A DNA stretch of 64,000 nt from Capitulum mitella (Eukaryota > Arthropoda > Thecostraca > Pollicipedomorpha > Pollicipedidae), in contig CP099846.1 in assembly GCA_030062745.1 (NCBI GenBank), positions 27,859,201 to 27,923,200 of the forward strand, written 5' to 3'. Position 1 is the stretch's first letter, and every line of letters begins with the position of its first letter. Positions 1 to 53,402 of this stretch are shown here, in pieces. Under the pieces are notes generated by a model, which was given only the letters and a program-made list of their open reading frames with translations, made no database searches and was not told the DNA's origin. Position numbers and translations under genes: made by a program.

Positions 1-1635
1 ATCTACTATCCGCTTTGTCATATCGCTCTATCACTAACCAGTCTGTCACCCGGTATGAGAGGCCAAAAAGTGATGAGTCACAAGCCGGAAAGTGACGTAC
101 GACAGATGAAAACAGGACATGTAAGAGGGACAGTGGCGTGTGACAGGACGAACGGAGACGCATGACGGCCCAAAGATGCGTGACCGACTGCGCAGACTTC
201 GACACCACACGGTGACGTATAGCAGGCCTGACAACGACGTGCGAGCACCCGTGACAGACCAGACAGTGACGAGTGGGGCCGGAAGGCACGGCGTGAGCGT
301 CGTAGCGTCGGCGGACCTCCTGGTAGCGTTCTGACACGCGCCAGGGGTCGCCGCGGCCGGGAAGTGGCTGGGACCGGAGCGCCCAGCCGCGCCGCCGGCG
401 GCAGAGCGGCCGCGATCCGTTCGCCAGCGTTCGGCCCCGACGAGCTGTCGGCGGCCGCGGCCGAGCACGGCGGCGCCGGCGGCGGCGCGCCGAGCACGGC
501 CATCCGCGCCGGCCGCCGTAAAAACCGGCGAGCAAACAGTCGGCCATCTCCAGGCGCGGTGACATCACCGGGCAGCGGCCGGCACGCACGCGCCGCGCCG
601 CCCCCCGCCAATCCCCTACATCTGGCAGCGCGGCGCGGCCGGCCGGACGGCCGTGCAGCGCCGATCGCGCTGCAGATAGCGCGGCGGCCGGCGATGAGAG
701 GAAACGCGCGCGGCCGCGGAATCCGGTCGGGCCGCTGTCGGCCATAGTAACGCAGCCGCTGCTCGGCACGAGGCGGCCGCCGCCGCCGTCCAGACAAAGC
801 CACCACGTGGTGCGTCCAGACGGTCGGGTTAACCGCCGCGCCACGCGGGAACTGGCCGGGCCGCTCGTCGGAGTAAACCAGCGAGACCGATTCAGGCGCG
901 TGAGGATGCCGTCAGCAATCGGCGTCGATTCTTTTTCGCGGATGCGTGCTTGCAAGCGGATATTGTCGCTGTCAGTCCGAATCCCACCGGATGTCACCAC
1001 TTTTGCAGCCTTCATAGCACATCGCACAAAACATCGGCTGCGGTCCACTGCTTCACGACTTCGTGATAAGCCCGCTTACGAGGCTTTTAGGTGCAGCATT
1101 GGCAAACTGCTGGATTGTTTTCCGGGAACCTGTTGGTAACTGCAAACATTTTCCTGTTTATAGTTTGTTAGGGCTAGTGTGACGCAACCACGACACAACC
1201 AAAAGAATTATAAAAACAACGTAATGGTCACACCCAACGCGACCGACTTCTGCAGGACAAGACTGGCTGTCTTAGAAGATTACTGAAACAGTAGTGACGA
1301 TCGTCCCCCAAGCAGAACGACTGCGGTACAGGGCGGAAACGCAGACGAAGGCGAAGTCCCGAAGCCGAAATGATCCATTGCCGCCGTCCACGTCCGCAGC
1401 GACAGACATGACGCCCATTTCACATCTCGAACACCAAACCCAATACCACCGCAACGCCCAACAGGAGCCTGATACCCCTGGTAAGTCACCCAACACGTGA
1501 GCCTCAATGCATCGCCATGACGTCATCGTAACGCCATGCTCTAGTTCACGTAGTCTGCAAGTTTAAGTCCACACAATCTCTGTCCAGATGACGCACTGCA
1601 CAAGCGCGTCTGCCACACGCACCGCTCCCGCGTAC
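1..1635. other. Probable intron of the Sec14-domain gene; no gene seen
   Basis: The only exon recognised nearby ends at 1636 on the minus strand with a good donor, so this stretch should be intron, with the next exon to the left of the window. I looked on the minus strand for the rest of the Sec14 domain and found none. Positions 60-330 hold loosely repeated GTGACG/GACAG motifs and 360-800 is dense in CpG. The ORFs in the CpG-dense part are arginine/alanine-rich composition artefacts. Confidence 0.5.
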
Positions 1636-1816
1636 CTGGGTATCTGGTACATGTACTGCATCAGCTGGCAGAGGTCGTCGTGGCCGGTGCGGTCGCGGCG
1701 CGCGCTGGCCGGGAAGGTGAGCACGGGCCCGCCGCGGGGGTCCCGCGCGCCGGTGAGCAGCGCCACCCGGTCCCGCAGCAGCGGCATCACGTCCACCGCC
1801 CGCAGGCCGTCCATGG
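1636..1816 (-). CDS. One exon of a Sec14/CRAL-TRIO domain protein, probably TRIO/Kalirin-type Rho GEF (partial)
   Basis: This 181-base exon encodes about 60 residues starting MDGLRAVDVMPLLRDRVALL and including RDPRGGPVLTFPA and LMQYMYQIPR. The pattern of a leucine-rich helix, then GxRDxRGGPxLTFPA, then a helix ending in IP is the start of the Sec14 (CRAL-TRIO) domain at the N-terminus of TRIO and Kalirin. These are multidomain exchange factors for Rac and Rho that guide axons and shape the actin skeleton. The exon has a pyrimidine-rich acceptor (AG at 1817-1818) and a GTACGC donor (1634-1635). Two bases precede the ATG codon and two follow the last full codon, so the flanking introns are in phases 1 and 2. 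The ATG may be internal rather than the start. Neighbouring exons are not in the window or were not found. SESTD1 or another Sec14-spectrin protein is the main alternative; GGPVLTFPA favours TRIO/Kalirin. Confidence 0.62.
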
Positions 1817-4379
1817 CTGCCGAACAGAGGAACGGGTGACGCGAGGGGACCGAGACGAAGACACGAGACGAGGTCGAGACGAGGTGGGAGATAAGAACAG
1901 GAGCAGAGGACCACACGGTCATCGCAGGCATCACGTGAACCGGTCGCACATCGTTCGTGCTGTGGAAGAGAGGACGATACAGTCAACAGAGGCGCCACAC
2001 CCACCGCCTGCAGGCTGTCCGTGCTGCCGGCCAGAGGACGACACAGTCAGATAGACGTCCCTGCTGCCCAACACATGACGACAAGGGCAGCAGGGCTGGA
2101 TGACATTCAGTCGGCGACATCGATAAACGACGCGCCGGAGGAAGGCGGCTTCCTCTTGGTCTGCAGCGATACAAGGCGGTGTCAGAGTCGGCAGCGGGGG
2201 CGTGTCAGACCACACAGTGCCAGTCAGCGGCGGAGGACGCAGGCCGGAGCGGACCGTGACAGTCAGCAGAGGTGGCCGGAGAACAAAACACCGTGGCACA
2301 GTCAGCAGCCGTGGGCGCACACCACAGCCGACAGCGTCAGAGTCAGCAGAAGTGGACGAAGATCAGTGCAGACGGCTTCAAAGCCGGCGTCGGTCGCAAC
2401 TTTGACCACGTGGCGTAGGATCAGCGTTCGTCGTACGTCAGACCGGGAGGGGTCAGAATCAGGTCGCAGGTCACACCGGGTGCCGTCAGCATCAGCGCCG
2501 GTGGCGGGTCAGCACGCGGCGCCCGCACGTCGTCTCGCCGCCGCGTCACTCGACACGGGACGGGGCCGCGGCGCGGCGTATAAACAAGCGGCGTCGCCGG
2601 CCGCCGGACAGAGGTCGCGCATCGGGCCCGGACACGGGACATCAGGCCGGCCGGCCGTCCGGCGGCTGCGGGCGGTCCGCCGCGGCCCGCCGGCCCGCGG
2701 CCGAACGACGAAAACGGGTTATAGCCGCCACCACCTATCTGGACAGTCAAACAGATAAGCCACTCCATTCTCACACCCCAGTGATAGTGAGCGGGTAAAG
2801 TCAGTCTGTGCAGGCACGTGCGGGCCGGAAACACCGGGCGCGTCGACGACCTGGGCGTGCCTTAGCCCTGAACCGCACGTGGCAGCGGCATGTTTTGTTG
2901 CCGTGTGCCCAACCTTTACAATTATAGTTCGCGTCACGAGAAAACCTATCCTAAATGCTGTTTTAAACACCAACTCAAACATTTCTTGAAACGTCGGCAT
3001 CCTGGCAGTGCGTGACGTACATTAAGGGAGTGACGAAAACAAATGTATGTGTGTGTGTGTCATGTATTCATGCGCCCGTTTTCACACATTTCTTTTTTCA
3101 TGACGATACCGACGTAACAGCCAATGCACTGCGGGAACCCTCAAATCTATTATAATACAAAACACTAATAAGAGTAGCTCTAAATAAGAACGCGGCGGAA
3201 ACAGCAATACTAAAGCACTGTAAAGCGATTAAACCCATTATCCAATTTCACTAAGGGATAACATCTATAGCCCGCGTCGGCCATCTGCTCGTTCCGTGCC
3301 CACTTCCACTTCATGCATGATTCAGCCGGGCCGGGGCACGGCGGCGACACCTGCGCTGCCGTCCGGCGGCCACTTGCCCGCTCCGTCCGGCGGCCACTTG
3401 CCCGCTCCGTCCGGCGGCCGGAGCGTCGTGACGCCGGCGCCGGGCGGCCGCGGTCCGGCGCCGCCCGCCCTCGGCGGCCGGCCCGCCGCCACACAATGGA
3501 CAGCCTTTACGGCCGGTCACCCCCCCCCCCCCCCCCGGACGTGAGGCGGGACAGCCGGTCTGACTGGACAGCCGGACAGCGCGGACGGAACGGACAGGCA
3601 CGGGACGAACGGCCGGAGGGGGTGGGGCCGAAGCGCAGCCGGACAAGCCAACATCGCGTGGATTGACGGACTGACGCACTCACTGGGTAGATGAATGAAT
3701 GAATGAATGGATGAATGGATAAATGGCAAAATGCTTGTCTGGCTGACGGACTGAATGACTGATTCAAGGATTTGTTAACTGACGACTGACTGCTTACTGA
3801 TAAGTGAAAGACGAAGTGGCATACGACACAAATGAGGTCGCCGAGGGCAACCGGGGAGTGAGAAGCGTGGCGCATTCAGCCGTCCGATCGGTCACGTGGC
3901 TCCATATCATCCCCGGCGATGCCTCAGGCTGTCACTGAGGCATCGCCCGGCGTCACATCTTCGCTACGACATAGCAACACCGACTTAACTGGTTTGTACC
4001 TTAAAGTTTAATGGCTTGGCTATCCCGTCGGCCAGCGCCGGCGGTGCCAGTTCGCGCATACTGGGATTTGGCGATCTCTGATGTTCCTTGAATGGCCCGT
4101 TTTATAGGCAGCTTGTGATACCAATATACCGCGCCGGCGTAAAAATGTGGACAATGTTAGGTCCACGCCGCTAACAATAGCCAATAACGTTGTTCTACGG
4201 ATCAGAAGACAATGGAGTACAATTCCAGATCCGAGCAAAGCTGCATGGCCGGTTGAGACCCGGCCTGAGGTCCCGTCCGACCAAAGGTCACCCAGACCGA
4301 CTGTTCTCATTTGACCGCCAGTCACCCAAGCCGGCCGCTCTCATCTCATCTGACTGCCAAGGGCGCCGGCCCAGGCGTC
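1817..4379. other. Intron or upstream DNA with degenerate minisatellites
   Basis: No exon is recognised. From about 1965 to 2460 a loosely repeated motif (ACAGTCAGCAGAGG and relatives, roughly 40-50 bases apart) forms a decayed minisatellite. The stretch 2480-2720 is CpG-dense. A TG run lies near 3045-3060, and a (TGAA) microsatellite at 3691-3726. Long reading frames here carry arginine-rich, low-complexity translations and look like composition artefacts. Confidence 0.5.
3359..3420. repeat. 24-base tandem repeat, about 2.6 copies
   Basis: Two perfect 24-base units (3359-3382 and 3383-3406) are followed by a partial third. The unit begins CCGTCCGGCGGCCACTTGCC. It sits in a GC-rich stretch with no recognised gene. 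Confidence 0.9.
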
Positions 4380-5215: not shown

Positions 5216-5279
5216 GGCTGCGAGCCCCGGGCAAGCCACAGTGACGGCACGGGGGAGGAGGTGGAATATGGGACAGGAT

Positions 5280-6641: not shown

Positions 6642-6648
6642 AGGATAT

Positions 6649-9009: not shown

Positions 9010-10470
9010 AGTACGGACTGTAAGGACCGGAGCTGGTCGGCGCCGGCGGCTGAGACTCACATCCGTCACGCCCGGGGCCCCGGGACGCCCATCGGTACCG
9101 CTCGGAGAAGCTGACGCGCAGCTCGGTCCCCTCTCGACAAGCTGGAGCGCAAATCAGTCCCAATCGGAGACGCCTGGGCGTAGCTCGGTCCACTCGAAGC
9201 TGCGGCGCAGGTCGGTCCCGCGCGGTCACGCCGAGGCACAGAGCTATCCGCCTGCCCGGAGAAACCGTTCCCAGGCGTCAGCCGGTGACCGCAGCCGTGC
9301 CGGGCCGGGCCGCCGACCGCGACACCGGCGGCCGCGCGAGATGATTCTCACACGTCGGTGAAAGGGTGCTCACGCCTCGGTCGCTGCGTCTCCGGCGCCG
9401 GCCCCCGTCCCCCACAAAACTCGCAATTCTGCGGCTCGGCTGCGGCCGCGGCCCGCGCGCGCCCAGCTGGACCTGTTCTGGCTGCGTAATGGTCTACCAG
9501 TCAGGCATGTATTCGGCCCGCTGAGCCGGCGCCAGGCATCCATTTTTAAGTTCCGGGCTGACAGGATGGAAATAGCTTTCACGGGCTTCATAATCGACGC
9601 GTTGCCCTGTGCTACGCGAGTTTTCCGCGGCCTCTCTCCGTGCGATGGCACCTGCGCTGCAGCTGACGCCCAGCTGGCGCGGCACGGAGACGGCTTCTTT
9701 TTAAATCCGCCCGATCCACACAACGGCGTTTCGTCACAACGGTCGGATAGCGGGTAAAACATAAGAGGCAGTTCGAATAGCCAATCTGAGGCGTTTCACG
9801 TGCCGTACCACGGCGCTGTGCCCATGCGAATCACCGTCCACGCCATGCCAAGTTTCCCATGGGCTCTACAAAGACGCGGAAGCACACTGTGCACGAACAC
9901 ATACCGGAGAAATCCAGAGCTCCACGCACGTCTCCGCGGCCGGACACTCTCAGCACCAAGTCCACCCGAACGACCCCGTAATCAGTCACCAGTCAGCAGA
10001 CGGACGGGCCAAAGGGCAGGAGACAATGAGCGGGCATGATTGACGGCCGGGACCTGACCATGCCTCACAAACGGGGGCCGAGCGGCCATCTATCTGGCCG
10101 GCCGCTACATTCCGGATAAACACAGATGGCGCGGCTCTGCGCGGCCCAATAAACCGCCGACTAATGGCATGTATACACACGACACTGCACAAACAGGACG
10201 CGCTACGGACGCCCGGCCCGCGGCGGCCGCCCGTCCGCGGAAAGACGCTCCTCCCGGCGCGGCGGACGTCATCACCGGGCGACCCCGTCCCCGGGCCCCG
10301 CGGCCACGACGGGCCACAGCGACGTCATCTCCGGCCGAGCCGAGACGGGTTGGTGAACCCGCGCGAGCCGCCGCCGCGCGGCGCCAGGACTCAGGAGAAC
10401 TCGCTGGGCGGCTCGGTTTCCTGGCGGCTGATCGCCGATTAAGCCGACTGTAAAAAATCAACGTTTCCTT
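9010..10470. other. GC-rich stretch with decayed minisatellite; no gene seen
   Basis: Positions 9050-9290 contain a loosely repeated motif around AGCTCGGTCC every 40 or so bases. The stretch 10200-10440 is CpG-dense. A 223-codon minus-strand frame at 10105-10776 has no recognisable domain and runs across both GC-rich and AT-rich DNA, so I do not call it a gene. Confidence 0.4.
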
Positions 10471-11568
10471 GGAAACGTTTACTCTCAGGAGATGGCTTAC
10501 TGCACATGGCCTTCTGACGGCTACCACGCAGCTCCACGTGGCTTGTGATCCATGACACGAGAGGATAAAACTGTCACGAAACGTGAGCTGACCGACTGCA
10601 CGTTGCCTCTGGAAATGTATAATGAAAAACGAATATCCCACACCAAGGTCATGCATGCAATCGACAGGAAATGGACGTAAATACTGAACCATTATTGGAG
10701 AGCGGATAAGCAGTTGGGTACACAGAATGCCCCATACGTCTCTGTAATTTTCGGCAAAATGTAATATAATATGCATGTTCTAATTAACGTCGTCCCCCTC
10801 AACGGCAGGGGGTCGACGATCTTTCGCCAGATCCAATGGTGAAAGTGGATTTGGTTGCCAAACAGCGATGGTTAAAAGGATGTTGCATGGGAAGAAGGCA
10901 CTTTTTCTAATTTTTGAACTTGCTCTGTTTCACGCCAACACGGATGATTCTGATAGGAAATTGACGCAATGCAATGGAATAGCACTGTCTTTGACCAGTA
11001 TAAGTACTTGATGCAGTTGTGTACCTTTGTCATTTGGCCCATTTGGCAGGTCTGCAATCTGCAGGATCCAAATCTGAGAATCACATACTGCACTGCACTC
11101 TTTATCCCAACTAAGGTTTCCTAATGGCATATGGTGCCAGATGCTGCACCACCCAAACTGCTTGGTGACTGTTAGAGGTCACTTCCATGTACAGCCATTG
11201 ATAAAATGTTCCATATCCCTCAGCTGAGCCAGCCCCATTCACAACCATGCAAATGCACAGTGCACAACTTCTACAATGATATTCCCAGCACAACGTCTCA
11301 GCCTCCAAACACCAGAAATCATACTGATAATGCAATGGTCCAAATTCATGGCATTTCATGAATACAGTGGCTCCCATCAGTCTTTCCCAAGAAACTATAC
11401 CAACCAGCCTCTTCCCAACAGTAACAAAGGATATAATTATCATACTCATGGTTGAATGATATCAGTGGCATGGGACAATGTAGTATACCCATACCATTAC
11501 CATTTTCAATAATGAATGACTTATTCTGGACTTCCACACTCCTGAAAGAGCTGAAGCTGTATACACCG
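10471..11568. other. No gene recognised
   Basis: Composition falls gradually from GC-rich to AT-rich. Minus-strand frames at 11111-11449 and 11346-11690 encode a few hundred residues without a recognisable domain. A short hairpin, GTCCCCCT pairing with AGGGGGTC, lies near 10793-10816. Confidence 0.4.
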
Positions 11569-13316
11569 TTTTCTGCTCCCATGCACAACAATTTGCTTAA
11601 GCAAGGCCTACAAGTGTGCAGACTAGCATCTTCTGTTATCCTATCACCCATCATCATCATCATCCCATCACTACCAAAGTATATGAGCACAGCCCTAACA
11701 CAGAATAAAGGCCTGTCACACAGAAAGCCAGGCTAGGACATTTTCCAACATATGCATCAGTGTCAGCAAAACTTAAAATCTCCAAAAATTTCCCTTAAAC
11801 AAAACATGAAGTGAAAACAACAGAAATGAAAAACTATCACACAACTGATATCAAACTAGGTTTGATTTTCTTGTATCCTTCCTTGGTCTGGACAGGAACA
11901 TTTTCTCTGTGTGGACAAGAACATTTTCTCCAAAGCAATAATTACACTACTGTGGCTTTTCCAGGGCTGCAGATACTTTCCATCTCTTTCAGTCTTGGCA
12001 GTTTGGTGGTAATGCTGGGTCACAATTTGCCCTGCAGGATTAAGATCACAGTTCCTTGCAGTACCCACTTATCACTTTGGAAGTCATATCCTATTATAAT
12101 GTGCCTCCTTCCTTCACAAACATGCATTATCATTCCATATTACAATGTTGCAAGATATCTGACATAATACTTGTCAATAATCATGCAACATTATTCCTGT
12201 TGCCTCACCTCAGGATTCCTGAGATATATACATCATCAACACTCATGGTATAAAGATGATGTACCACTAAATACAACATCAAAAGTCCCTACATTTTTGT
12301 GGAGGAGTTTGTAGAGATACAGGTATGTCATTAATCATTAACAGAAATAAAATGATCCAACAATGACATATCAAACATATACAGATTCCTAAGTACAACA
12401 AAAAATGGCAGGATGTGGTAACATATAACATGCATCCTGAATGCTTACAGCAAGTACCAAAAAACAACAATAAAATATCAAGCAGTCCCATGTACAAGTG
12501 ATCCAAGCAGCCACAACCATATGAGTAATCAAAACATTAGCTAAGCATGGGTTAAATCAAGTCAGGTAGTCCAATTTTTATGCACCTCAAGCACACAATA
12601 TCATTCAAGTGCAATTTTGTATAGTTAATTCTGGAAAGTTAGTCTCAGTAAAAACAGAAACTATACCAGTAGTTCAAGCAAGGCACTTATGCAGTAGCCT
12701 GCCAACTATGACTGGTTTCAGGGACAATGTGCTGATGTAATACCAATCACTCAGACAACTGACTGACTCCATACAACACACAAGACTTGGCCCAAGACCA
12801 AGGTTGGAAAAGATCTTGTTTTCTGGTGTTGAAGAACACCAGAAAATATATACTCCAAGAACATTTTGTATTCCAAAAGTTCAATTTTGTGCCTCCATCA
12901 ACAAGCTGCATTATAACCATGTTGACAAATTCCTAATTCTGGGAGCAAATGGCCATCTGCATCCAGTAAGAAACATGTATGATATCACAACTGACTTACA
13001 CCAAAAATGCTAACTTAAACCAGTATTACTCTTTGCAAAATTTTGTACTCCATAACAAAAATTATACTCTGACATCAAGAACCAGAATCAAAATTCCAAC
13101 CCTGCCCAAGACTTTAGACATCTGAGCCCAAGAGCCTAAGTCCTAACTCAGAAACAAACAAACAATACCAATCACTGGCACAGTTCAGAGCCCTGGTTTA
13201 TCTGGGTTATGCCATGGTTTTCCAAATCTGCCAGTGCACACACAAAAGCATGCAACAGAAAACTGACAACATGCTTCCAAGATTCCCACCATGACCAAGA
13301 TCCTAACCAAAGGCAT
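11569..13316. other. CpG-free block 1
   Basis: By eye there is no CG dinucleotide in these 1,748 bases, while CA and TG are common. The block is AT-rich and holds the second copy of a dispersed repeat at 12796-13103. No exon is recognised. Complete loss of CpG is the expected scar of long-standing germline cytosine methylation; flanking DNA is CpG-dense. Confidence 0.8.
12796..13103 (+). repeat. Dispersed repeat, copy 2 (inside CpG-free block)
   Basis: This copy aligns with 8707-9009. Where copy 1 has ACACCGAAAAAT and CTCCGACACC, this copy has ACACCAGAAAAT and CTCTGACATC, so two CpGs appear as CpA and TpG here. Both ends fade out without a clear target duplication. Confidence 0.8.
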
Positions 13317-14827
13317 CGGTGCACAAACTTGTGGCCCCGACAAACATCTGCTAGAGTTTGAGTCTGGCTTATGCAACAGAATGAAAAAAATTTAACAGCA
13401 TCAGAAACAGGAAAAATTAATGATGCTTTCTGGGCAAAATCATTGCAATCATGATGAATATGTCAGAAAACCATATTTCAATGTTTCTGTAATGAGTAAA
13501 TTGCAACTGTTTTTAATGGTCTCTTAACCCAAGACATTTTACAAGATACCAAACAGATGTGTTATTCAACATAAAGAATGTGTACATTTGCTCATTTTAG
13601 AGTATGAGGGTAGTGCAACACAACATCATCCTCTTTATACAGCTTTCCCCCTCATCAGTACTGCTGAACTAAGATTATTCTTATTCAGCTTGATAGCATT
13701 TGCCGGTGGGTATGCTAAACTGGTACTTGCTGAGGATTTGTAGTACTTTCATATCTAAAATAAACAGGTATTTATGTTTGGGCCAGAGGCAAGAAAAAAA
13801 GTCCAAAAAAACAGCAAATACCATATTATGGTTAATTCACAGTGGCATGGTAATGCAGTGGATGTAGTTAAAAAGCACATCAGTGCATATCAGACTCACC
13901 TCTTAGACAACAGGGCACGAATGCGCGGAAATTCCTATTTGTCGTCTACACTACCACAAAGATTAGAACTGACACCTATCTCGGCGCACATCTTGCACCG
14001 CGCCAAAACACGTAGATTTCAGTGTCGGCGAGTTCCGAGATCACTTTCACGCATCCACATCGAGTCTAGAGCATTTAGATACGTCCCAGATAATGCACAT
14101 GTCCCATACAGTTGGTCAAAGCCGTTACGAGCCGCGGTTGACAACGGCGTCTCGAGCCGAGCCCGTCACGACCGAACAACAACAAACACTACCCAATCTG
14201 ACGCACCATAGAGGTCTCAATAAATTGCTGCCATATGGGCATGGCAGGTAGAGTATTTAGCCGCTGCGGTGTAAATATGTAGTAGGTTTAGTAGTGTGAC
14301 AACGTAGAGGATTTTGTTATCTGCGAACGGGAGTCCGGACTCTATATTTGAGTCATGGCCGGAACCGAAATGTAAGAAACAAGGATGCATGGAACCCAGG
14401 ATTTCAGAAATTGCGTGGCGGCTGTTTTTCCCAGCGAAGACGTTTTCAAGTAAACAGATGTATAGCTGGCTGCTTGAAAGCCCGTATTCCGTTGACTTAA
14501 ACTGCCAATTGTTATGCAAAATCTCTAAATTATATGGATAACAGAGGCCATAATTGCAATGCTTTAAATTTCGTACAATTGAATGTCATTCACCTGAGTT
14601 CCGTGCTTGCATTATTTTAAGCAAACAGAAAGCGGAAAACAGAGTTTCAGCGGCTTTCTCACGTTGTTCACCCGACAAATAACGCATTAAAGGTGAAAAT
14701 CCGTTTTTTTAATAAAAAAAAAAATACAGAACAAGGAAATGATAGCACTTCCACCAAAATCCCATTTCCAACCTGCAAAGACATTTACCTTTCTGTGTAG
14801 CTCAAATAAAACGGACACCTGCCATTC
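13317..14827. other. No gene recognised
   Basis: CpG reappears from about 13920. A 145-codon plus-strand frame (13774-14211) has no recognisable domain and no convincing splice or start context. An A/T run sits near 14705-14728. Confidence 0.4.
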
Positions 14828-18736: not shown

Positions 18737-18786
18737 ATATCCGTAAAACTGCCTCGATATCGTTCTCCGAGGACACTAAGTGAGTT

Positions 18787-30470: not shown

Positions 30471-31500
30471 ACTGAAAAATAGACATCAGACTCGTTAACC
30501 TCATTGTGAAACTGATCATTAGAGATAATTTCATTGGGGTCGGAATAAGTCGCTAAATAAATCGCTAAATTTCATATCGTCGCATTCATTCTTTTCATTC
30601 ATTCATAAATGACTTTTCCTCACGGACATATCGGGCACGGCCTTCTCCCGCCAGCAGGGGTTCACCTTGAGGCGTGGTTTGAATGACGTAGCTAAGAGCT
30701 AACGACTTGGTTCATATTCGTTAGGCTTTGATTATGAACCTGATGGGACCAAAACGTGGATGAAAATCAATATATCTCACAGATGACAGTCCCGAGGCTG
30801 ACGTAAGAGAAGATAACGAGCCTTTTGTTTGATGCCATTTGTGGTGTTCGATCCATCACCGTCGTATTTCACCTCCGCCAGGGGAATGTAAAAGGTATGC
30901 ATCCCCTAACTTTTGTGGAATCCGACTCATTCTTTTCATTCAACGCGGATAAACATTGAGTGATCAGGAGTGCATACAAATCTAAATCATCCTCCCAATG
31001 GGTATCTTGTTGCCTCAAGAGCCTGCAGCTGCGCCTGACCACCACGTTGCCTTTAAGAAAATATGAAATACTTCATTGATGTATGGAAGGATAAAATCTG
31101 ACTCTGAATAAAAGATCGGTAATTGTTTGTATTTACCTCCTCGAAAAATAAACGAAATTAAAATGAAGATTTGGTCAATGACGTATTTTGGTCTGCGGAT
31201 GCCTTACCCTTCGGCTTGCTCTCGGCGATCCTCAACGATATCCTCGGCCTTGTACGAAGATCACGTCATTCGTTCCGTGACGTTGAAGCGTAGCATGAGT
31301 ATTGTGGCGTCCAGCGGCGCATTCTCCAGTTTAGACTACGGTATAAACATGCCGATATTGAAATCATCCATGAAAAGGTGAGATATGCTCTGAAGTCGTT
31401 TTTCCAGTATTCTGTGGCTAGTGAGCGCTCGGGAAGTGCATTTTTTTGTTACTTGGTGATTGCAAGACATTTTCAGCGCTTTGGAGACGCGAAGAGTACG
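30471..31500. other. No gene recognised
   Basis: Average composition with scattered ATTCATTC motifs near 30580-30610 and 30930. Nothing recognisable. A 201-codon minus-strand frame (31336-31941) starts in the CpG-free block and ends here; it has no domain I know. Confidence 0.4.
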
Positions 31501-33324
31501 TAATATTTCACAAGAATTGGCCACTGTGGCTGTTTTTCTTGAAATAAAAAGAAAATGCCATATGTGGGTCTTCAATATGAGTTGTAGGCTAGGTGTATCC
31601 CTAACTTCACAAAAATTTACATTGTGCCTATGGCAAAGCATGAGAAGAATAGGACTTGAATTGGCATGTACCTCCCAAATGATTTTGGAATTTTGCTCTT
31701 TGGGAACCCTGGTAACCATTGAGTGAAATAGATACAGCATCATCCTGGTGGTGTGCATAACTTGTGTTGCCATCTTTAGACTATATGATGCACCATTATG
31801 AAAGTAACCAGTGCTGTAATATATACATGCATCAAATTCATTAAATTTGCATTGCAGTAAAGAATAAAGTGATATTTGGCTGCCAAAAAATGAATTAACA
31901 TCAGTTTTCACACAGTCAGTAGAATTAATTGAAAACAACACCAGTTTTTCTATTTTATGACTCCTTCAACCATGTAAATTGAGCATACACAGGTTGAAGA
32001 TCAGAGCAGACAAATATAGATCATTTCTATACTGTTGTCTTCAAATCTAAACCAAGATGACTCATACTTTTGTACTTGGGTTGCTGTCTGCTGGCAGCTG
32101 ATTGTCAGTTTGGTTATGAGTTTGGAGCACCATTTTGTGACTGGAAGAGGTCATGGGCATAGCTTTAGGCAAGAAATTTTGGAAGTAGCTCATGCCAGTA
32201 TAGCTAAGCATTTGATTGCTCAGTTTAACATATCTGCTGATGTATCAGTGATAAAATTATGCTGAAGATGCATGCCAGTTGAAACTCCTGGAAATTTTGA
32301 AAAAAGTTCTCCCAAAAAGTCCTTTTTCTGTGTCTTCTTGACAGGAATCAATCAAATCTGAATCTGGAAAATGTGGGAAGTTTTGATGAGATCTGTGTGG
32401 GATAGAACTGAGGTGACTGTTTGACTGATGTTAAGGTAGCAATTACAAATGTGGCCAGAATTATGTACATTGGGTAGATAATTGTGTTTTGTGACAGGGG
32501 ATTGGACTGTGAGGCACATAACCATCATCATGGTCCAAAAAAGCTATCAACAAGTTGGAGCAGCATCTCTGAGTCATATTTGTCATAACTGTATGATATG
32601 TCTTATTTTGGTTATCAGGGGTGAATCATTCTTCTGTATAAAATGCAGATATAAGAATCTGATAATTGCTTTGATGCTTGGTTATGTGCATTGTAGGGTT
32701 TCTGGTATTTGAAAGTATGTATAAGAAGATAAAAATATGCCTTTCCTTACAAGTGCCATGAAGGAGGAGTCAGGAAATAAGAATAAAGTAATATCTGTGA
32801 CAGCTCTAAAGATAACTGATGCATTTTTTACATGCCCAAATCCTTTGGTAATGTAGAAGTAGCATTATGGTCATTATATCAGAAAAAATCAAAAGAAAAT
32901 AACTTGCCCCCTATTCCAGCCATAGGTCTTTTTCCAGAATGCATATTAAGTCCCCAAATGCTAATGAATGTATGCAGGTTCATTGTTAATAATGCCACAT
33001 GGTTATGTTAGTTGAAAGGTCCACAGTGGTGTCAGTGGAATGCATGCAGCCTAACAAAATGTTGGAGCTTGGAAGGAAATACTGTGTTCAGCTGTTTTTG
33101 TCTCTTGTTTCCTTTGTTATATTTAATGCATGAAATATTGCATGCAGTAAGGCCCTCCAAGCAAAAGTGCATCAGTGCAAACAAGATGTGACATGGCTAG
33201 CTGGGGACATTGTCCTGCTAAGGCAAGAGTCTATCATATGATGCTTCACATTATTGGAAAAAACTGAGCCAGAATTTAAAGGTGATATTCCAGTGGCTGG
33301 ATACTCTGCTTCTGGACCATTTTA
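31501..33324. other. CpG-free block 2
   Basis: By eye, 1,824 bases contain no CG dinucleotide. The left boundary is abrupt: at least four CpGs lie within 31470-31500. The block is AT-rich with abundant TG and CA. A minus-strand frame of 201 codons (31941-31336) overlaps its left end but resembles no family known to me. Confidence 0.8.
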
Positions 33325-34154
33325 CGCTTCAGAAATGTTCATTTTAACCCACCACTGACTGGGTGGGGGGGGCAGATAAACTTCCCCCCTGAGGTTTTTC
33401 TGCAACTGAAGGACTGCAAGAGGCTGGACAAACACAGTGCCATGGAACGTCATGTACCTTTTACTTGATCATTTTTATGCCTTGTGTCAAAGTTTTGACC
33501 TCAGGTCAAGTCGGGTGCCTGGCCTAGGTAAGGTCAAATGGACCCATGTCCAAAAAAAGTTTAGCACTCTGTAACTTTTTTGGGAAACAAGAGGTCACAA
33601 TAATACTTTCAGGGATTAATCATCTTGATAGATGCAACAAATCTGCTATCTCAGATTTTTGGAATTTTCTGGGTCACTGACCCAAGGTCAAGCCCGTTTT
33701 TAAGACATGTTGTTTTTCCGGAAATCGGCGGAATTTTCCTTAACATTTTTAGTGTGGAGTGAAGCAGACGTCTAGTTACCGTCAACGTGCAAAGTATCAA
33801 TGATTTTCAACCTTTGACCCCAGGTCAGGTCACAAATAACTGTTGTGAGCCAAAATGTACCACCGGCAAAATCAGCGACGAATTGCTCAGAATGGGTAGA
33901 AAATGGCAGAACTGACTTGCACATATGTAAGTAATATCAAGAACCTCAAAAAGTTTTAAAAAATTGCACATTAGTAATATCAAGAACCTCAAAAGGTTTT
34001 AAAAAATTGCACATTTCGGAAATAAACAGGCTCTCGTGAATAAAGCTCCGCCATTTGTGTAGATTGGTAACTAATGAATTGTTTTCAAAATTTAAGTGTG
34101 AGAAACCATCACAAGAATCACTAAGATCAATAAAATTTACATGTATAGGCTTAT
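33325..34154. other. AGGTCA-rich DNA and a 43-base tandem duplication; no gene
   Basis: The stretch 33480-33850 has paired motifs such as TTGACCTCAGGTCAAG, TGACCCAAGGTCAAG and TTTGACCCCAGGTCAGG. A 43-base unit beginning AGTAATATCAAGAACCTC is duplicated in tandem at 33930-33972 and 33973-34015, nearly identical. A short G run lies at 33363-33372. Confidence 0.7.
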
Positions 34155-37848: not shown

Positions 37849-37856
37849 GACCCCAT

Positions 37857-44129: not shown

Positions 44130-44380
44130 CCGCGCTCGCCGCCCGCGACTGGGCCCCCACCAGCCGGAGCGGCAGCCCCGCTGCCGGCCGCTCTGACGCC
44201 TCGGCCGCACCGCCCGCAGGAGAATGAGTTGGCGAACATCGACGACAACCAGCCGGTCCGGCTCAGCGTCACCATGAGCCTGACTTCGGCGCTGGACGCG
44301 CGCTGGGAGGCCGTGCTCTGGCGGCGGCGACTCTACGTGCAGGTGCCCACCGGCCTGCTGCCGGACGGCTCCAAGGAGGG
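44130..44380 (+). CDS. OAZ: Ornithine decarboxylase antizyme, penultimate coding exon
   Basis: Antizyme binds ornithine decarboxylase, blocks it and delivers it to the proteasome without ubiquitin, and so holds down polyamines. This exon reads (in ORF2 frame) LSVTMSLTSALDARWEAVLW, then RRRLYVQVPTGLLPDGSKEG, aligning with the fly-type antizyme region ending LYVxLPxDLPDGGKEAF. It ends at a GTACGT donor (44381) in phase 2, which joins exactly to the last exon as GG|A. The 5' limit is inferred from a pyrimidine-rich acceptor (AG 44128-44129). Antizymes are made by +1 ribosomal frameshifting, usually at UCC-UGA. I do not see UCC-UGA here in the right register. UGA codons in the register that could precede a +1 shift into this frame are at 44084-44086 and 44225-44227. 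The residues before about 44240 are proline/alanine-rich and not conserved. Confidence 0.85.
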
Positions 44381-44494
44381 GTACGTGTCGCACCGCCGCG
44401 CCGGCCCGTCACCCGCGCACGCACACAGACAAATGTCGCCGCATCGTTGGACACTGGCAGGGGTGTGGTCGGTCGCAAGCCGGGCGGAAGGTAT

Positions 44495-45265: not shown

Positions 45266-47043
45266 GACCTAACGTCCCCGGCCGCCGGCCGGCCCGGCGG
45301 AGAGACGCCTGTCAGCTGGCGGCCGCCTGTCCTCCGGCCGGGGACATACACACTGGCCGGCCAGACGGTGTAAACATTCTGAGGACTGGCCGCGTGCCGG
45401 ACACAGGCGGCGACACAGACAGACAGGACGTCGGTATATGGCGGGGAGTGGGACATCTGCCGCACGGACTGCACGCCGGGAAGGGAGAGGGTGGGGGCAG
45501 CGTGAACCGTGGGTCGTGGAGGTGGAGTCGCGAATGGGACATGGCACGCGCGTCGGGAGCTGCTCCGTATCGTTTGTGCTGTCGAGGTGCCGTTCCCAAA
45601 GTCCACTTGGTCGAAGAGATAAGATGTACTGCAGAACGGTTTAAGGTAAACAACGATAAAGCAGTCGCGATGGTGCGACACACGGTAATTCCCGAGTGCA
45701 ACTTGAAACTAGAGCAATCCGGCCGGTGCTGGTCTTGACACATCCAGAACTCCACGTTCCTGAATCGATCCCGGCCATACAAGGCGGGCGGGGCGGGGCC
45801 CAGGCCGTCGCACGAGGGACGGGACCCCGTCGTGGCCGGTCACGCTCGGACACGCCCGCTGCCGCGCTCCTGTCGTGAGCGTTCACGAAACCTCAGCTGT
45901 CCGGCGGCCCGCCCCGCGGCCGGCCGGAGCCGTCCCCGGCCGGCGGCGGCGCTGCGACGTTGGCAGCGCGCGGCGCACGGCGGCCGGCCAACGGCGGCGC
46001 CGCGGCCTGCCGAAATAGCGGGCCGGCCCGGCCGGAGGCGCTGCGCGTCCGCGGTCGCCGGCCCTGTTGTCACCCGCCGCGCCGCGTCGCAGCTGGGGAG
46101 GGGGGGGGGGGCGCCTGCAGCCGTGGCGGGGTCGCCGGGGTTCATTTGGTACTTTGGGACTGAAGTGTGAATGGTGTGGGTTGGAGCCGTGGTCGCTTCG
46201 TGCTTTCGCACTGCAAGCTGCGATACTGCACACAGACAGTGTAAAGAAGCGACGATCGGGGTTTGCTGTGCTCGCTGCCGTCTTGTGGGGCGCTCGGCTC
46301 GCATTGACGCAGTATCGGGCGTCTTGATGCCTGATAAATCAATGCGCGGTCGCGAGTCCCCGTGGGCGGCGGAATCCCGGACCCTTGTGCAATATGCCGC
46401 CGTCGTCTCACCGGTCGCTACCTCTCTGCCATTGTCTGTGACCTGGTGACGTCTGTGCCTACATAAAGTGTGAGGTGGCCCGTCTGGTTTGCCGTACCGT
46501 GCAGCGAACTCTCCACCGTCAGTTCTTTTGATGAAGTCTGGCGTGGTATGCCCGATGTGACCTCCGTTTCGTCCTTTGTCGTGAGCCGTCTCCCCCTGTC
46601 GTCAGCGTTCCCGGTCTCGAGGGCTCTGTTTGCGCTGGTGACGTCAGCTCGTGTTGTAAGCCGCCGCTCACGGCTTCTTAGTCAGCTCGGAGCGTCAGAG
46701 CGGTGGTCGATACGACCTGTAGCGACCCTGGCGCCGTCTATAGTGGCGACACGTGCGGCGGGCCGATCCAGTCCGTCCCTCTGCTGCCGCGCACTGCCTT
46801 TGTGACAGTCCTGCGCGTCATGGTTGGGAAAGCCGCAGTTCACTTCGCGGTAGTGTCAGGCGGGTTGCGCGCTGTTTCTGTACTGCAGCCGGCCTCTATC
46901 TTCCTCCAGCCTCGTCTCTGAGGAGTCAGGCAGTAGTGCCGGGAGTTTGTATCCCCCAATCCGCGGCAGTTGGGCGGCCGCGTGCGTCCGTTCGCCGTTC
47001 GCCGCCGTTGCCGCCGTCCTGACCCGCTGCCCCGCCGCCGCAG

Positions 47044-47245
47044 ATTCGTCTCTCTGCTGGAGCTGGCCGAGGAGACGCTGCAGGCCAGCCACGTGATCAT
47101 CAGCCTGCGCAAGGACCGGCCCGACCGAGCGAGCTTGGTGCGAACCTTCATGTTCCTCGGCTTCGCGCCGATCCCGCCGGGCAGCGACATCATCCCGGCC
47201 AGCGGCGACCAGGACAACCTGTACCTGGCCTACGCCATCGAGTAG
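47044..47245 (+). CDS. OAZ: Ornithine decarboxylase antizyme, last coding exon
   Basis: The exon starts with A, completing the glycine codon from the previous exon. It reads FVSLLELAEETLQASHVIIS, then LRKDRPDRASLVRTFMFLGF and AYAIE before TAG at 47243-47245. FVxLLExAEExL, DRAxLxRTFxFLGF and the final LxYxxE segment are the most conserved part of antizyme, the face that contacts ornithine decarboxylase. With the previous exon it gives the complete ORF2 C-terminal domain at normal length. There are no breaks. The C-terminus stops at IE, without the short acidic tail of vertebrate OAZ1. Which paralogue it is cannot be told; arthropods usually have one. Confidence 0.92.
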
Positions 47246-48235: not shown

Positions 48236-50379
48236 TCGGGGAAGCCCCGACGGTTTTGGCCGCTGCTCTCCGCTGGTTGTGCTGTCATCAGGTTAGATTA
48301 CAAAGTTCTATAGATACAGCTTAAAACCAACACAAATGCTCATAAAAATGATAAAATATAAAATCCGGGAACGGACTGCGTCCTTGGTGATGGGCCAGTT
48401 CGAACCCACCAAAAAAATCCGTATCACATCGGTGGTTTGGTCCATCCCATTCCATGTATTTTGTCCTGTGTTTTATCGTGGGTAACTTTTGGGCGGCAAC
48501 GCTTTCTTGCTGGATGACGATTGCTTTTGTTCGGTGTGTTTGCGACCGCCATCCTCTCGCTATCTTCGCTTCCGTCGGAACTAGCCTTGAGAATGTGTCA
48601 CGTTACGATCACAACCCGAATACAAAATTAGAGAAATAGCGCGTTGTTTTCTGTCGTCGCACTGCCGGCCGGCGACGCTCGTGCGGATACGCTGGGAAGC
48701 TGCGTGCGGACGTGCTTCCCAGGACGGTGGGCTGCAGGAATCGTGCCGGTGTCGCGGCAGGCCGATCCGGCTGTCCCGGGCGGACTCGCTTCTCGGTGAC
48801 GGGGCACGGGTCCGCGGGCGAACTGCGGTTCGCGCTGTGGGATGACGCTGGCTGTCGGCTGCACGGAGTATTTCTGCCGCAGAATTCGGTGCCACAGCCA
48901 CAGCTGCAATGTCGAATGCTGCTGTGAGGAAATGAGGCGCTGGCCGCCCGAGACGCAACGAAGTGCAGGTGGATTGATGCGATTTCGGTGCAGTGCAACA
49001 GCAGCGTACTGGGATTTTGAGGATTTCAGCTCAAGTGTGTCAGACTCCGGAAGCAAGCATATCTGGTAAGGAATCAGGAAATGCAAAATAAACGTCAATT
49101 TCTCGGGACTCCGTTGGGAATGAGATGTTTAATTCAACCGTCTATGACGTCCGGAAGTGGCACATTCAAACACGAAGAAATACTCTTAACACCAAAATGA
49201 TTACGTGCTGTCATCTGCCTACCGCCGTACTGAAATTCGATCGGAGGGCTGGGGTCCGTGAATCCGACGCTGAACATGAATTTGTCACTAAGTCGCTGTC
49301 AACTACAGGAGTTCCGTGATGGCACGTTTCCTGAACTGCAAAAACAAAAACCTTTCAGAGGTCACAGTTCTAAATGAAGCGGAAACATCCCAACACCACG
49401 TCAATGGACGAGCCCAAAACTACATTTGACCTAGCTTAGGAAAATCTTAGGGTGTCATTATCCTTGACCTGAACGTTATACGGCATGCATAGCTCACAGA
49501 CACCGGGGGTTAAAAATGTAGCGCCGTGCCGACCCCGGTAGCGTTTATAGATCCCACAGCCCTACGAGGCTGCATTGGCCTGAATGGTTCCGCCCATCAC
49601 GCGTCAAATTACAGTCAGCCTTCCATTACGCTGGAGAGCTGCTCCCCCCCCCCCTTCCCCTCCGGCTGGCTGTTCAGAAATGAACTAAAAATGGCTCCCA
49701 CGCCCAGTCCGGAAGTTCCGCCGTCAATGGCGACCATCCCCAAATCCGGACTTCTGGAGGTCACAAATCTTCGTGTACAAAAGTATTGTAACCGCCTTGA
49801 TGTGCGCATCGCTGAATACCTGATTACATTAGCTATTTCTGGGTCGCAGTGGTCGGCGACCCGGTCGCCGAATACGGATGGGAATCGGACATGGGGCTGA
49901 AATTGCTCTAACTATGAAGGTAAGTAAATTTGGGATCAATACCAAAACATGTTAACGTGGCGCAATCGCGACAAAATATATAAATGGATTCTAAAAATAC
50001 GTTTTCTGTCGTGGTTCGAAAATTTCATGGGTCCGCGTGGGCCGGCGTGAAGATTCTTATACGGGTTTGTTTTTAACTGCGTGAAGTACATTATTTTTCG
50101 CCAGTCCGTGCGGATTTATGCAGTTTTTGTAAGTATCAGCATGAGCCCACCATGGGAAATACAAATGCTCCATCCCTGTCAGGCCTAACTCCACCAAAAA
50201 GGACTGCCTCCATCCTTGCTCACTTGTTTTGTCAGTATTCATGTATGTGGGTTTGCCATATTTTATGTCAGAGCTCTTCAGACTACAGAATATGAATAGG
50301 TTTTGTTAAATTTGTTTTTAGCCAACAGCTTTGTGTGAGTCTGTAGTAAATTTGTGTATTCTACAACAGCATATGTACG
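48236..50379. other. No gene recognised
   Basis: Average composition with a GC-rich patch at 48660-48850. Frames on both strands have no domain. From about 50115 CpG becomes rare. Confidence 0.4.
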
Positions 50380-51636
50380 TACATATGAAAGTGACATGTA
50401 CATACATACATTATGTCCACATATATCCATGTTTGTATATGCACCCATATGCTCATGCACATACATTTATGTTGATGCCAACATGTTTTGAAGCACAAAA
50501 GGGCTGTTGATGCAGTTCTACAGCTTTCACTTGTTAGCATTTAGGACACAATGTTTTTTTTCAATATTTGACCTATGTTTGCCTATTGAATCATTTTCCC
50601 TTTACTATTATTAGCTCTGCTGTGCATTTTTAGGATTTTTTGAATCAAAAATATGCTGACAGTATTGTAAATTCATGCTCACCTAACCTAAAACATGATG
50701 TGGAAAACCTAAAACATCAGCCATTTCTTAGCCATCAGATATAGGCAATGATCTGTCAGGCCTGCTGATTTGCTGCCCTTAAGGGAAGTGGTGTGTAGAG
50801 CAGACTGTGAATGGACAACTGTGTACTGACATTGGTTATTCCTAAACTGTAAACTGTACTGTCCTGCACAAAACAAAACTGCTTGAAAATGGCTGTGGTT
50901 GTGTCAACTATTATCACCAAAAATGGCTGCATGCCTCTCAGAGTTCTAATCATGAGGACACCAGGCTTAATGCCAAGAACACCCATCATTCATGAAGTTC
51001 TAAAAAGCTCAGCTCAGGAAAGCTTTTAGATGCTCATAGCCAACTTAGAGGCCTGTCCCAGTGATGAACAATGCCATTGTAGGAGCTGATCAGGAAAAGA
51101 AACCAAGCATCTTCAAGGTTTGGGCATCTGTAAACATGAAAATTAAGCTTGCAATAGGGATTTCACACTAGTTGCAGCCAAGGTTAAAATTTTGTTTTGC
51201 AGCCTGAGGTTGATTAGAACAGAATGAAAAATGGGAACATGACAATCATGTAATGGATAGGTTTGTGCTACATGCAGAAGGCAATATTCAGAACAATATT
51301 TACAGGTTGGAGATCCAGACTTATCTGTAAAGCTGAAACCTGAACTGAAGTTTCAGAAACATCACCTTAATATTTTGGGATGGATAGTGGATTGATAATG
51401 TGTGATAAAGCATGTGAATCATTAATAGGCATTAGTATAACAGGGGAGTTGGATGAATGTGTGGAACAGGACTTTTCTATATGTGAAAACAAAAGAATGG
51501 ATTTCACCCAGTATAAAACTTTTGACATCAAAATATCTTGAGGTCTGAAAACTTTGAGAAATACTCAAGATTCCTACTTTGGTTGTGGCTTTTTAATGAA
51601 ATGTTCTGTAGGTACCCTGCCCCAGTGCTGCATGTG
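50380..51636. other. CpG-free block 3
   Basis: By eye, 1,257 bases without CG; only one CpG (50378) lies between about 50120 and 51636. AT-rich, with TG/CA common. It ends about 220 bases before the USB1 start codon, where CpG-dense DNA begins. No exon is recognised inside it. Confidence 0.8.
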
Positions 51637-51860
51637 CGAATAATGGACGTTTTGCACAATGCAGATTGTACCCAGTTTTCAGCCAAATGTTGTTTTTTTA
51701 ACAACCATTCATATAGTTTCTGTATCAGCAGGCAATAGGACTGGCTGCCATTCCAGCAGCACCAGCCGCAGATCTACCTGATGCCGCCAGTGCCACCCCA
51801 GCAGGTGACGGGTGCCACCTGTGACCCAGCCCTACCTGACTCGGGCTCGGCGCGGCCGCC

Positions 51861-52373
51861 ATGTCACGGTGCGTGCAGGTGTCGCCACCGGCGGCCGGGC
51901 GGCGGCCGGCGCCGCTGGCCGCGCTGCAGCAGTACGGCAGCTCGGAGGACTCGGACTGCTCCGACATGGAGGTGGACGTGGAGCGGCTGGCCGGCAAGCG
52001 GCGGCCGGCCGGCGCCGCCCCGCCGCCGCCGTCGAAGCGGCGTCGGCAGCCGCTGCCGCCTGCCGGACGCCGTGCAGGACATGTTTGGCGCGGCCGCAGC
52101 GGAGGTCGAGGACCGGCCGGAGGCGCACCAGGGCCGGGTCCGCGGCTTCGCGCACGTGCGGGGCAACTGGGCAACGTACGTGTATGTGCCTTTCGCTACC
52201 TCGCCGGTGTTTGAGTCGCTGCTGAAGAGTTGCCTGGTGATTTGTGAACCTCTGGTGAGGCTGACCGCCCAGGAGGATTTTCACGTGAGCCTCACGCGGA
52301 CGGTGGTCCTCAAACACCACTGGATACAGCCGTTTGTTCAGTCCGTCAGAGAAGCTTTGGACTCGTTCGGAAG
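51861..52373 (+). CDS. USB1: U6 snRNA phosphodiesterase USB1, exon 1
   Basis: USB1 (Mpn1) trims the 3' oligo(U) of U6 snRNA in the nucleus and leaves a protecting 2',3'-cyclic phosphate. The start codon has a strong context (GCCGCCATG). The N-terminus reads PLAALQQYGSSEDSDCSDME, like the acidic start of animal USB1, and a basic KRRRQ stretch follows. The conserved part has LPDAVQDMF, HVRGNWATYVYVPF and FHVSLTRTVVLKHHWIQPFV, with the first catalytic HxS motif (HVS, 52282-52290). These two parts are in different frames: one base too many lies in a CTGCCGCCTGCCGG stretch at about 52048-52066. Dropping one base there would make the whole gene 286 codons plus stop. A GC-rich assembly error or an allele-specific break are both possible. 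The donor is AG|GTGAGC, phase 2. Human USB1 has 265 residues. Confidence 0.9.
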
Positions 52374-52759
52374 GTGAGCCACCTCAGGCAAAAGTACTGC
52401 ATTGCTCACTCAATTCCCCGGGAGCTCGTGTTTACTGGGTTGCGAAATACAAATAATTGTGCAGGGGTTTTAATAAGAGAATTCGAAGAACAAAGAAGAG
52501 CATAAAATTGTTACTTATATGACTTTTGAATGGCGGAACTCTGAGTTTCTCCGAACAGCTATGGGTGAAGGAAGGGGGGGGGGGCATTGCTACTAACTGA
52601 TACCACATATATCATGGGCGTCACGCATTACGCTAATCGTCATCACGGAGCACAGTTTTTGATGAGGATACCTCCTCATGCCATGCCTAACCGTCAGCAT
52701 ACTGCCTTCCCTGTCTGGTGACAGTCTGCTCTCAGTGTGTAGCGCAGCTGTGTCGTTAG

Positions 52760-52919
52760 CTTCCAGCTGTCGCTCGGCCCGTCCAGAGTGTACGTCAACG
52801 ACGAGCGCACGCGCACGTTTCTGGGGCTGACCGTGGCGGCCGGCGCGCACGCCGTCGCAGACCTCAGCAGCCGCCTGGACCGCTGCCTGGCCGAGTACGG
52901 CCTCCCGCCGTTCTACCAG
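52760..52919 (+). CDS. USB1: USB1, exon 2
   Basis: The exon begins with C after GTTAG, completing a serine codon from exon 1, and reads SFQLSLGPSRVYVNDERTRT, then FLGLTVAAGAHAVADL and YGLPPFYQ before a GTACGT donor (phase 0). VYVNDERTRTFLGL corresponds to KIYTNQEKTRTFIGLEV of the human protein. The upstream AG at 52758-52759 was chosen over a later CCAG (52765-52766) because only it keeps the frame and the conserved phenylalanine. The intron before it is 386 bases and has an ordinary donor. Confidence 0.92.
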
Positions 52920-53402
52920 GTACGTCACCAAAGCGCCGCAGTCTTCTCGATGGTTGTTGGCGAGTATGCGGTGTAGTGTGGCTTGTGACTAAGAGCCGGG
53001 GAGTAAGCAGAAGACCACATCAAAGTGTCGTAGTCTTGCAGTGTAGTCCAGCGTTTTGTACTATGTGTTTTGAATTCATTTGGATGCTTCGATATATGTT
53101 TTAGTGCCCCATGACTGCTGTTTGCGTGCTTGAAAACGAAACTAACCAGTCGTTATGGTTGCCCAAATGGGACGTTACCAACGTGGCCAGGGTATAGTTC
53201 AAGGTCCAGTCGGTAAGCCCAGCGCAAGTACCAACTAACTGGCGCACTGACCGTTGCCGGAGTAATTGTCAGAGTGGCACCTCGGGCGCCAGAGTGGCGA
53301 AACCAAATGAAGGGAAATGCTGAATGACGATGATGATAGTGCTAACGACGAAATAAAACCGTGGTCTGTCGCTCCGCTTCACCCGCCGTGACTGTGCCTC
53401 AG

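What the first reader, a model, noticed from the sequence alone, without database searches (positions are those of the whole stretch)
11569..13316. 1,748 bases without a single CpG inside CpG-dense DNA
Counting by eye, no CG dinucleotide occurs. At the local base composition several dozen would be expected. Flanking DNA within 1-2 kb is extremely CpG-rich. Spontaneous deamination of methylated CpG is the known cause of such loss, so this looks like a sharply bounded, long-methylated domain, more extreme than the partial depletion usual for methylated invertebrate gene bodies. It may mark the body of a transcript that frames and motifs do not reveal.
Basis: partly seen in the sequence, partly recalled or inferred. 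Interest (0 to 1): 0.7.

Follow-up and report, generated by a model that had tools for sequence, protein, structure and literature searches.

The report
CpG-erased start of a gene body
In what looks like a barnacle genome, the first two to three thousand bases inside some genes have lost almost every CpG while DNA on both sides keeps a full complement, which is best read as the scar of long-lasting germline DNA methylation at the start of transcribed genes.

Summary
The count is right to the base: window 11569-13316 has 0 CpG where about 61 are expected. It is the core of a larger domain, 10966-13917 (5 CpG, observed/expected 0.046), one of three such domains in the window; the other four segments sit at 0.99-1.19. 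TpG and CpA are raised by about the amount of CpG lost. The genome (477 Mb, 16 contigs) has DNMT1-type, DNMT3-type ADD and MBD domains. CCT chaperonin genes and a cereblon-like gene show what the domains are: about 1.7-3 kb at the start of some gene bodies, ending abruptly. In two genes a coding exon inside has 0 CpG while the next exon, outside, has a normal number. Here the sense strand is probably minus: a strong splice donor at 13899 opens into the domain and strand skew agrees; a kalirin/TRIO-like exon lies about 9 kb downstream. It looks like an unusually complete, 5'-confined form of invertebrate gene-body methylation. Methylation itself was not measured, and 2 of 5 CCT genes examined lack such a domain.

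The parts
11569..13316 (.). reported CpG-free stretch (0 CpG in 1748 bp)
10966..13917 (-). whole CpG-erased domain d1 (5 CpG, O/E 0.046); sense strand most likely minus
   Evidence: segmentation; skew in minus-sense orientation G over C +0.165, T over A +0.111
13894..13902 (-). strong 5' splice-site-like donor (11.5 bits; first intron base 13899), 18 bases inside the right edge of d1; probable end of a CpG-rich first exon
   Evidence: prediction from sequence, no transcript
12796..13113 (.). copy of an about 300-bp interspersed repeat inside d1; 0 CpG, against 1 in a copy at the edge of another erased domain and 2-7 in the 11 other distinct copies compared
1635..1817 (-). coding stretch like the N-terminal part of kalirin/TRIO (E 1.3e-14 to PDB 7ur2, kalirin); the coding match found downstream of d1 on the minus strand
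   Evidence: its link to the donor at 13899 is inferred
31500..33694 (+). second erased domain d2 (3 CpG, O/E 0.038)
   Evidence: sense strand from the donor
31375..31383 (+). donor (10.7 bits; first intron base 31378), 122 bases before d2
44241..44390 (+). weak match to ornithine decarboxylase antizyme (best E 0.011), upstream part
47036..47233 (+). ornithine decarboxylase antizyme coding stretch (PF02100, 43 bits, cut-off 24.2)
50112..51766 (+). third erased domain d3 (3 CpG, O/E 0.049), ending 294 bp before the first HVSL/USB1-like match
49917..49925 (+). donor (12.5 bits; first intron base 49920), 192 bases before d3
52060..52368 (+). HVSL (PF09749; USB1-like) coding stretch, 94.5 bits; its open frame reaches back to 51739
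52731..52922 (+). next HVSL coding stretch, 58.3 bits

Best explanation
The stretch is the core of a roughly 3-kb domain at the start of a gene body that has been methylated at CpG in the germline for so long that nearly every CpG has decayed to TpG or CpA. The domain begins just inside the gene, at a CpG-rich, presumably unmethylated first exon and promoter on the right (about 13.9-14.3 kb). It runs leftward along a minus-strand transcript and ends abruptly at about 10.97 kb. In the same genome such domains cover introns and coding exons alike over about 1.7-3 kb and then stop. Shown: the CpG loss, the edges, the TpG/CpA gain, CpG-free coding exons inside two such domains, and methyltransferase-type domains in the genome. 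Inferred: that methylation caused the loss, that transcription places it, the minus-strand sense, and the link to the kalirin/TRIO-like gene.
For: Zero CpG against 61 expected. Excess TpG+CpA is 66/kb in d1 and 56-67/kb in four other domains, against 11/kb in an 180-kb background that holds 65.5 CpG/kb. Pooled over five domains, O/E per 100 bp steps from 1.27 to 0.00 at the start and from 0.04 to 1.02 at the end (edges were set at CpGs, which sharpens the first bins; bins 200-600 bp inside the start rise to 0.19-0.43, in part from an insertion in CCT2). PF00145 matches at two loci: one about 18 kb from DNMT1-RFD matches on the same strand, the other best matched by DNMT2; one DNMT3-type ADD match and 9 MBD matches. 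CCT2: intron 1, set by codon continuity (ATG|GTGAGT ... |GCATCTCTG), is the erased stretch except its first 86 bp and an insertion. CCT7: 2557 bp, O/E 0.07, ending about 90 bp before its first coding exon found. A cereblon-like gene beside a domain of the genome sample lies on the strand the 5' model requires; its 2647-bp domain (4 CpG) holds a coding exon with 0 CpG of 9.2 expected, while the next exon, about 540 bp outside, has 19 of 20.5. CCT3: exon 2 inside, 0 of 2.3; exon 3 outside, 22 of 19.7. A donor of 10.5 bits or more opens into all 3 window domains between 200 bp outside and 20 bp inside an edge; chance for three about 1.4e-4 by random placement.
Against: No methylation or RNA data. 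Donor cut-off and distance were chosen after seeing the sites, and the d1 donor lies 18 bp inside the domain. The kalirin/TRIO-like exon is about 9 kb beyond d1 and the antizyme about 10.5 kb beyond d2, so both gene assignments are loose. No Pfam family matched in or near d1. Two of five CCT genes examined (of 11 places with PF00118 matches) showed no domain in the stretch fetched (CCT1, CCT5; the outermost 1 kb of CCT5 is low, 0.00-0.66), and CCT3's is weaker (O/E 0.25). Exon 1 of CCT7 was not found. No PF00145 match lies at the DNMT3-type ADD place. Acceptor-like sites near the downstream edges are no better than chance. Skew in d3 is not significant, and flanks outside domains are often skewed the same way. 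The published arthropod pattern is exon-enriched, whereas here introns are erased too.
Confidence: 0.8

Rival explanations
1. Methylation marks the first intron as such, from the first 5' splice site to exon 2, rather than a stretch at the start of the gene.
For: The CCT2 domain ends at exon 2 and the CCT7 domain about 90 bp before its first coding exon found; d3 ends 294 bp before the first HVSL match; donors sit next to the window domains' starts.
Against: In the cereblon-like gene and in CCT3 the domain runs through a coding exon, which is itself CpG-free, and ends inside the next intron. Acceptor-like sites at the ends are not above chance.
Confidence: 0.12
2. The domains are old methylated transposon insertions, or foreign DNA poor in CpG from the outset.
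For: Sharp edges, low GC (38-39%), and an interspersed repeat inside d1.
Against: Outside the repeat, 10966-12790 found no second match in the genome (the tool skips very common words); the three window domains share no sequence with each other; coding exons of conserved genes lie inside such domains; the TpG/CpA excess matches the loss. A palindromic insertion in CCT2 intron 1 keeps its CpGs within an erased stretch.
Confidence: 0.03
3. Selection against CpG in a regulatory element near the promoter, without methylation.
For: Position near the promoter; loss nearly complete.
Against: Loss runs across 2-3 kb, both decay products are raised, and it extends into protein-coding sequence.
Confidence: 0.03

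Closest known systems
Invertebrate mosaic gene-body methylation with CpG depletion (e.g. marbled crayfish, PMC6172769; copepod Eurytemora carolleeae, PMC11706791; passages of both)
   Same: CpG lost or methylation found in bodies of a subset of genes, with DNMT1 in the genome; in the crayfish housekeeping genes are favoured.
   Different: Here loss is near total (O/E 0.04-0.08) over a short 5' stretch and then absent. [quoted passage not shown] In Eurytemora, coding sequences average 0.5 and housekeeping-type genes have the highest values.
5'-confined gene methylation in some arthropods (Planococcus citri, Nicrophorus vespilloides: largely the first three exons; PMC7343188, passages)
   Same: Methylation confined to the start of the gene.
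   Different: That survey finds methylation higher in exons than introns in most species, with little difference in two crustaceans. Here introns are erased as fully as the two exons seen.
First-intron methylation in vertebrates (Anastasiadi et al. 2018, seen only as a citation in PMC10294446)
   Same: Same position in the gene.
   Different: There it is reported to go with lower expression; the genes here are mostly of housekeeping type, and the erased stretch does not always stop at the intron.

Membership tests
Invertebrate gene-body methylation (CpG-depletion signature) | CpG observed/expected clearly below the genome level | tested here: met
   0.046 in d1 against 0.99-1.19 in the four unerased segments of the window and 1.00 in 180 kb of background
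Invertebrate gene-body methylation (CpG-depletion signature) | Matching excess of TpG and CpA | tested here: met
   56-67 per kb in five domains against 11 per kb background
Invertebrate gene-body methylation (CpG-depletion signature) | Lies within transcribed gene bodies, promoter spared | tested here: inconclusive
   Met by coding continuity for CCT2, and the cereblon-like gene and CCT3 carry coding exons inside; for d1 only a donor, strand skew and a distant exon
Invertebrate gene-body methylation (CpG-depletion signature) | Preference for conserved, broadly expressed genes | tested here: inconclusive
   3 of 5 CCT genes examined show a domain, one of them weak; antizyme, HVSL/USB1-like and cereblon-like genes lie downstream of domains; homeobox genes were located but their DNA could not be fetched, so there is no contrast set
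Invertebrate gene-body methylation (CpG-depletion signature) | Genome encodes CpG methyltransferases | tested here: met
   DNMT1-type catalytic and RFD matches. DNMT3 is uncertain: an ADD match without a PF00145 match beside it; the second PF00145 locus is DNMT2-like
Invertebrate gene-body methylation (CpG-depletion signature) | 5-methylcytosine present at the CpGs in germline | not testable with these tools
   needs bisulfite or nanopore data
Arthropod exon-enriched methylation | Exons more affected than introns | tested here: not met
   domains made mostly of non-coding DNA stand at O/E 0.04-0.08 and the two exons inside are also CpG-free; the loss is so complete that a preference in methylation itself could be hidden
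Transposon-targeted methylation | Domain coincides with a multicopy element | tested here: not met
   10966-12790 found no second match; window domains share no sequence; only 12796-13113 is a repeat

The most novel reading that the evidence does not exclude
This lineage lays down a saturating, germline-stable methylation domain of near-constant length (about 2-3 kb) that starts at the first splice site of a subset of genes and stops abruptly whatever exons or introns it meets. It has erased CpG so completely that the methylated gene set and the domain edges can be read from sequence alone, and the N-terminal coding exons caught inside have been forced into CpG-free codons.
Probability: 0.35. 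Interest if true: 0.6.

Novelty: new variant of a known kind. Interest (0 to 1): 0.45.

Why it matters
If general, this genome holds an almost binary fossil record of germline methylation with edges readable to tens of bases, without bisulfite data. That makes it possible to test directly what starts and what stops gene-body methylation in arthropods (distance from the promoter, first splice site, nucleosomes), and how strongly methylation rewrites the codons of N-terminal exons.

Tried and rejected
Transposon or foreign origin: rejected. Rfam families and tRNA genes in the window: none found. Coding domains inside d1: no Pfam match on either strand; in the PDB only the minus strand of 1-13901 was searched, and its one hit, kalirin, lies outside d1. 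PDB searches of the plus strand covered 33601-48600; besides antizyme they gave one chance-level match (E 0.049). A strictly first-intron mark: first favoured, then dropped after CCT3 and the cereblon-like gene. The repeat inside d1 as a clock of deamination: only one CpG site is common in the family and copies outside carry just 2-7 CpG, so it is weak support. Acceptor enrichment at downstream edges: none. Strand skew as a general test: G over C is positive in sense direction in all six domains so oriented and in the cereblon-like one, but significant only in some, T over A is negative in CCT3, and flanks are often skewed likewise. L018's domain: no gene found, only a mariner-type HTH in that stretch. 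A contrast set of homeobox genes: not obtained. Literature: no paper of the library holds both 'Capitulum mitella' and 'methylation'; barnacle + DNA methylation + CpG gave 7 papers, none about a barnacle methylome by title; first intron + DNA methylation + invertebrate + CpG depletion gave 0.

Full report
Observation. Window 11569-13316 contains no CG; the neighbouring CpGs start at 11567 and 13317. Shuffling its bases gives 61 CpG on average and never fewer than 38 in 2000 trials. A two-state segmentation of the window finds three CpG-erased domains: d1 10966-13917 (5 CpG, O/E 0.046), d2 31500-33694 (3, 0.038) and d3 50112-51766 (3, 0.049). The other four segments lie at O/E 0.99-1.19. The reported stretch is therefore real, exact, and one part of a repeated feature.

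Where it comes from. The window lies in a 477-Mb genome of 16 contigs, the first of 45.5 Mb. That fits the stalked barnacle Capitulum mitella or a close relative: published assemblies have 463 Mb, 16 chromosomes and a longest one of 45.43 Mb (PMC8416341, passages), and 512 Mb (PMC11331182, passages). This identification is an inference from chromosome number and size.

Mutational signature. In d1, d2, d3 and the CCT2 and CCT7 domains the excess of TpG plus CpA is 56-67 per kb, against 11 per kb in an 180-kb background that holds 65.5 CpG per kb. The net gain of about 45-55 per kb is of the size of the CpG density that would have been there. This is the known signature of decay of methylated CpG. 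The genome has related machinery: PF00145 at two loci, one about 18 kb from DNMT1-RFD matches on the same strand of C2, the other closest to DNMT2; one DNMT3-type ADD match, without a PF00145 match beside it; and nine MBD matches.

What the domains are. I looked at chaperonin genes (PF00118; matches at 11 places; 5 examined, the CCT numbers being my assignment from recalled sequences). In CCT2, exon 1 ends ...ATG|GTGAGT and exon 2 begins |GCATCTCTGAACCC (M-ASLNPV...). The intron between them is erased from 86 bp after the donor, apart from a palindromic insertion that still has its CpGs and a few CpGs near the end. CCT7 has a 2557-bp domain (O/E 0.07) that ends about 90 bp before its first coding exon found; an exon 1 was not found. 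CCT3 has a weaker domain (O/E 0.25) that includes a coding exon and ends in the following intron. CCT1 and CCT5 have none in the 6.5-7 kb read, though the outermost 1 kb of the CCT5 stretch is low. So 3 of the 5 examined show one, one of them weak.

A test that could have failed. One of the two erased domains in the genome sample (L011) lies at the right end of its stretch. If domains sit at gene starts, a gene to its left should be on the minus strand. The only Pfam matches of that stretch, a LON-type domain (27.8 bits, cut-off 28.7) and a Yippee-type domain (21.1, cut-off 26.6), are both on the minus strand and in the order expected of cereblon (recalled); the plus frames give nothing. The domain is 2647 bp with 4 CpG. 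It contains a coding exon with an ATG, 0 CpG of 9.2 expected, whereas the following exon, about 540 bp outside, has 19 of 20.5. CCT3 shows the same contrast: 0 of 2.3 inside, 22 of 19.7 about 300 bp outside. Coding exons are thus erased when inside, and the edge can fall within an intron: the unit is the start of the gene body, not an intron.

The window's three domains. Each has a strong donor opening into it near one edge: minus 13899 for d1 (18 bp inside the edge), plus 31378 for d2 (122 bp before), plus 49920 for d3 (192 bp before). Random placement gives 0.052 per domain, about 1.4e-4 for three (thresholds set after inspection). Apart from transposases, the conserved genes found in the window are a kalirin/TRIO-like exon on minus at 1635-1817, antizyme on plus at 44.2-47.2 kb and an HVSL/USB1-like gene on plus with its first match at 52060. 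Pfam was run on all six frames of the whole window, the PDB on parts. Each gene lies downstream of one domain on the predicted strand. The link is close for d3 (294 bp) and loose for d1 (about 9 kb) and d2 (about 10.5 kb). In d1 the minus-sense strand has G over C +0.165 and T over A +0.111, the usual direction in transcribed strands (recalled); 0 of 96 unerased 2-kb windows reach both 0.15 and 0.08 with like sign.

Comparison with what is known. Gene-body methylation of housekeeping-type genes is common in invertebrates, also in a crustacean (PMC6172769, passages). [quoted passage not shown] Extensive CpG depletion is reported from a copepod, with a mean of 0.5 in coding sequences, 0.09-0.80 among 80 ion-transport genes, and the highest values in housekeeping-type genes, unlike here (PMC11706791, passages). 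What stands out here is the combination: near-total erasure, non-coding DNA as much as the exons seen, a length of about 1.7-3 kb, and abrupt edges with unerased coding exons nearby. I call it a new variant of a known kind.

Limits. No methylation, expression or population data. Four domains are closely linked to a gene (d3, CCT2, CCT7, cereblon-like), two loosely (d1, d2), one is weak (CCT3), and two have no gene identified (L018, L008). The donor and orientation tests are small and partly post hoc. Only the 5' parts of the CCT genes were fetched, so they do not test for domains elsewhere in those genes, and no contrast set of tissue-specific genes could be read.

Noticed in passing
window 18784-20442 (+): Open frame of 553 codons between stops; DDE_1, Tc5-type HTH and CENP-B_N matches occur in the piece of the window that holds it (1-21402): probably a pogo/Tigger-like transposase without a stop.
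   Followed up: no
window 24213-25771 (-): Two long minus-strand frames that look like hAT transposase remains; a hAT dimerisation-domain match lies in the piece 21301-42702, its exact place not located.
   Followed up: no
L041 about 1680-1990 (CCT2 intron 1): A palindromic, MITE-like insertion keeps its CpGs although it sits in an erased domain: probably young, and a good place to test current methylation.
   Followed up: partly
window 47919-48206: Array of a CTGGC pentamer, 57.6 copies; its CpG-free gap of 280 bp is a trivial result of the repeat unit.
   Followed up: no
L018 8879-10000 and L008 1464-3129: Further CpG-erased domains (O/E 0.05-0.06) without a gene identified beside them; L008 was not searched for genes.
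   Followed up: partly
window 44241-47233: The antizyme's two matched stretches lie in different frames on the plus strand; whether the programmed frameshift known for antizymes (recalled) is present was not examined.
   Followed up: no
window 51861-52060: An ATG at 51861, just past d3, opens a frame other than that of the HVSL match at 52060; whether a small intron or an assembly error lies between was not examined (read by eye; match).
   Followed up: no
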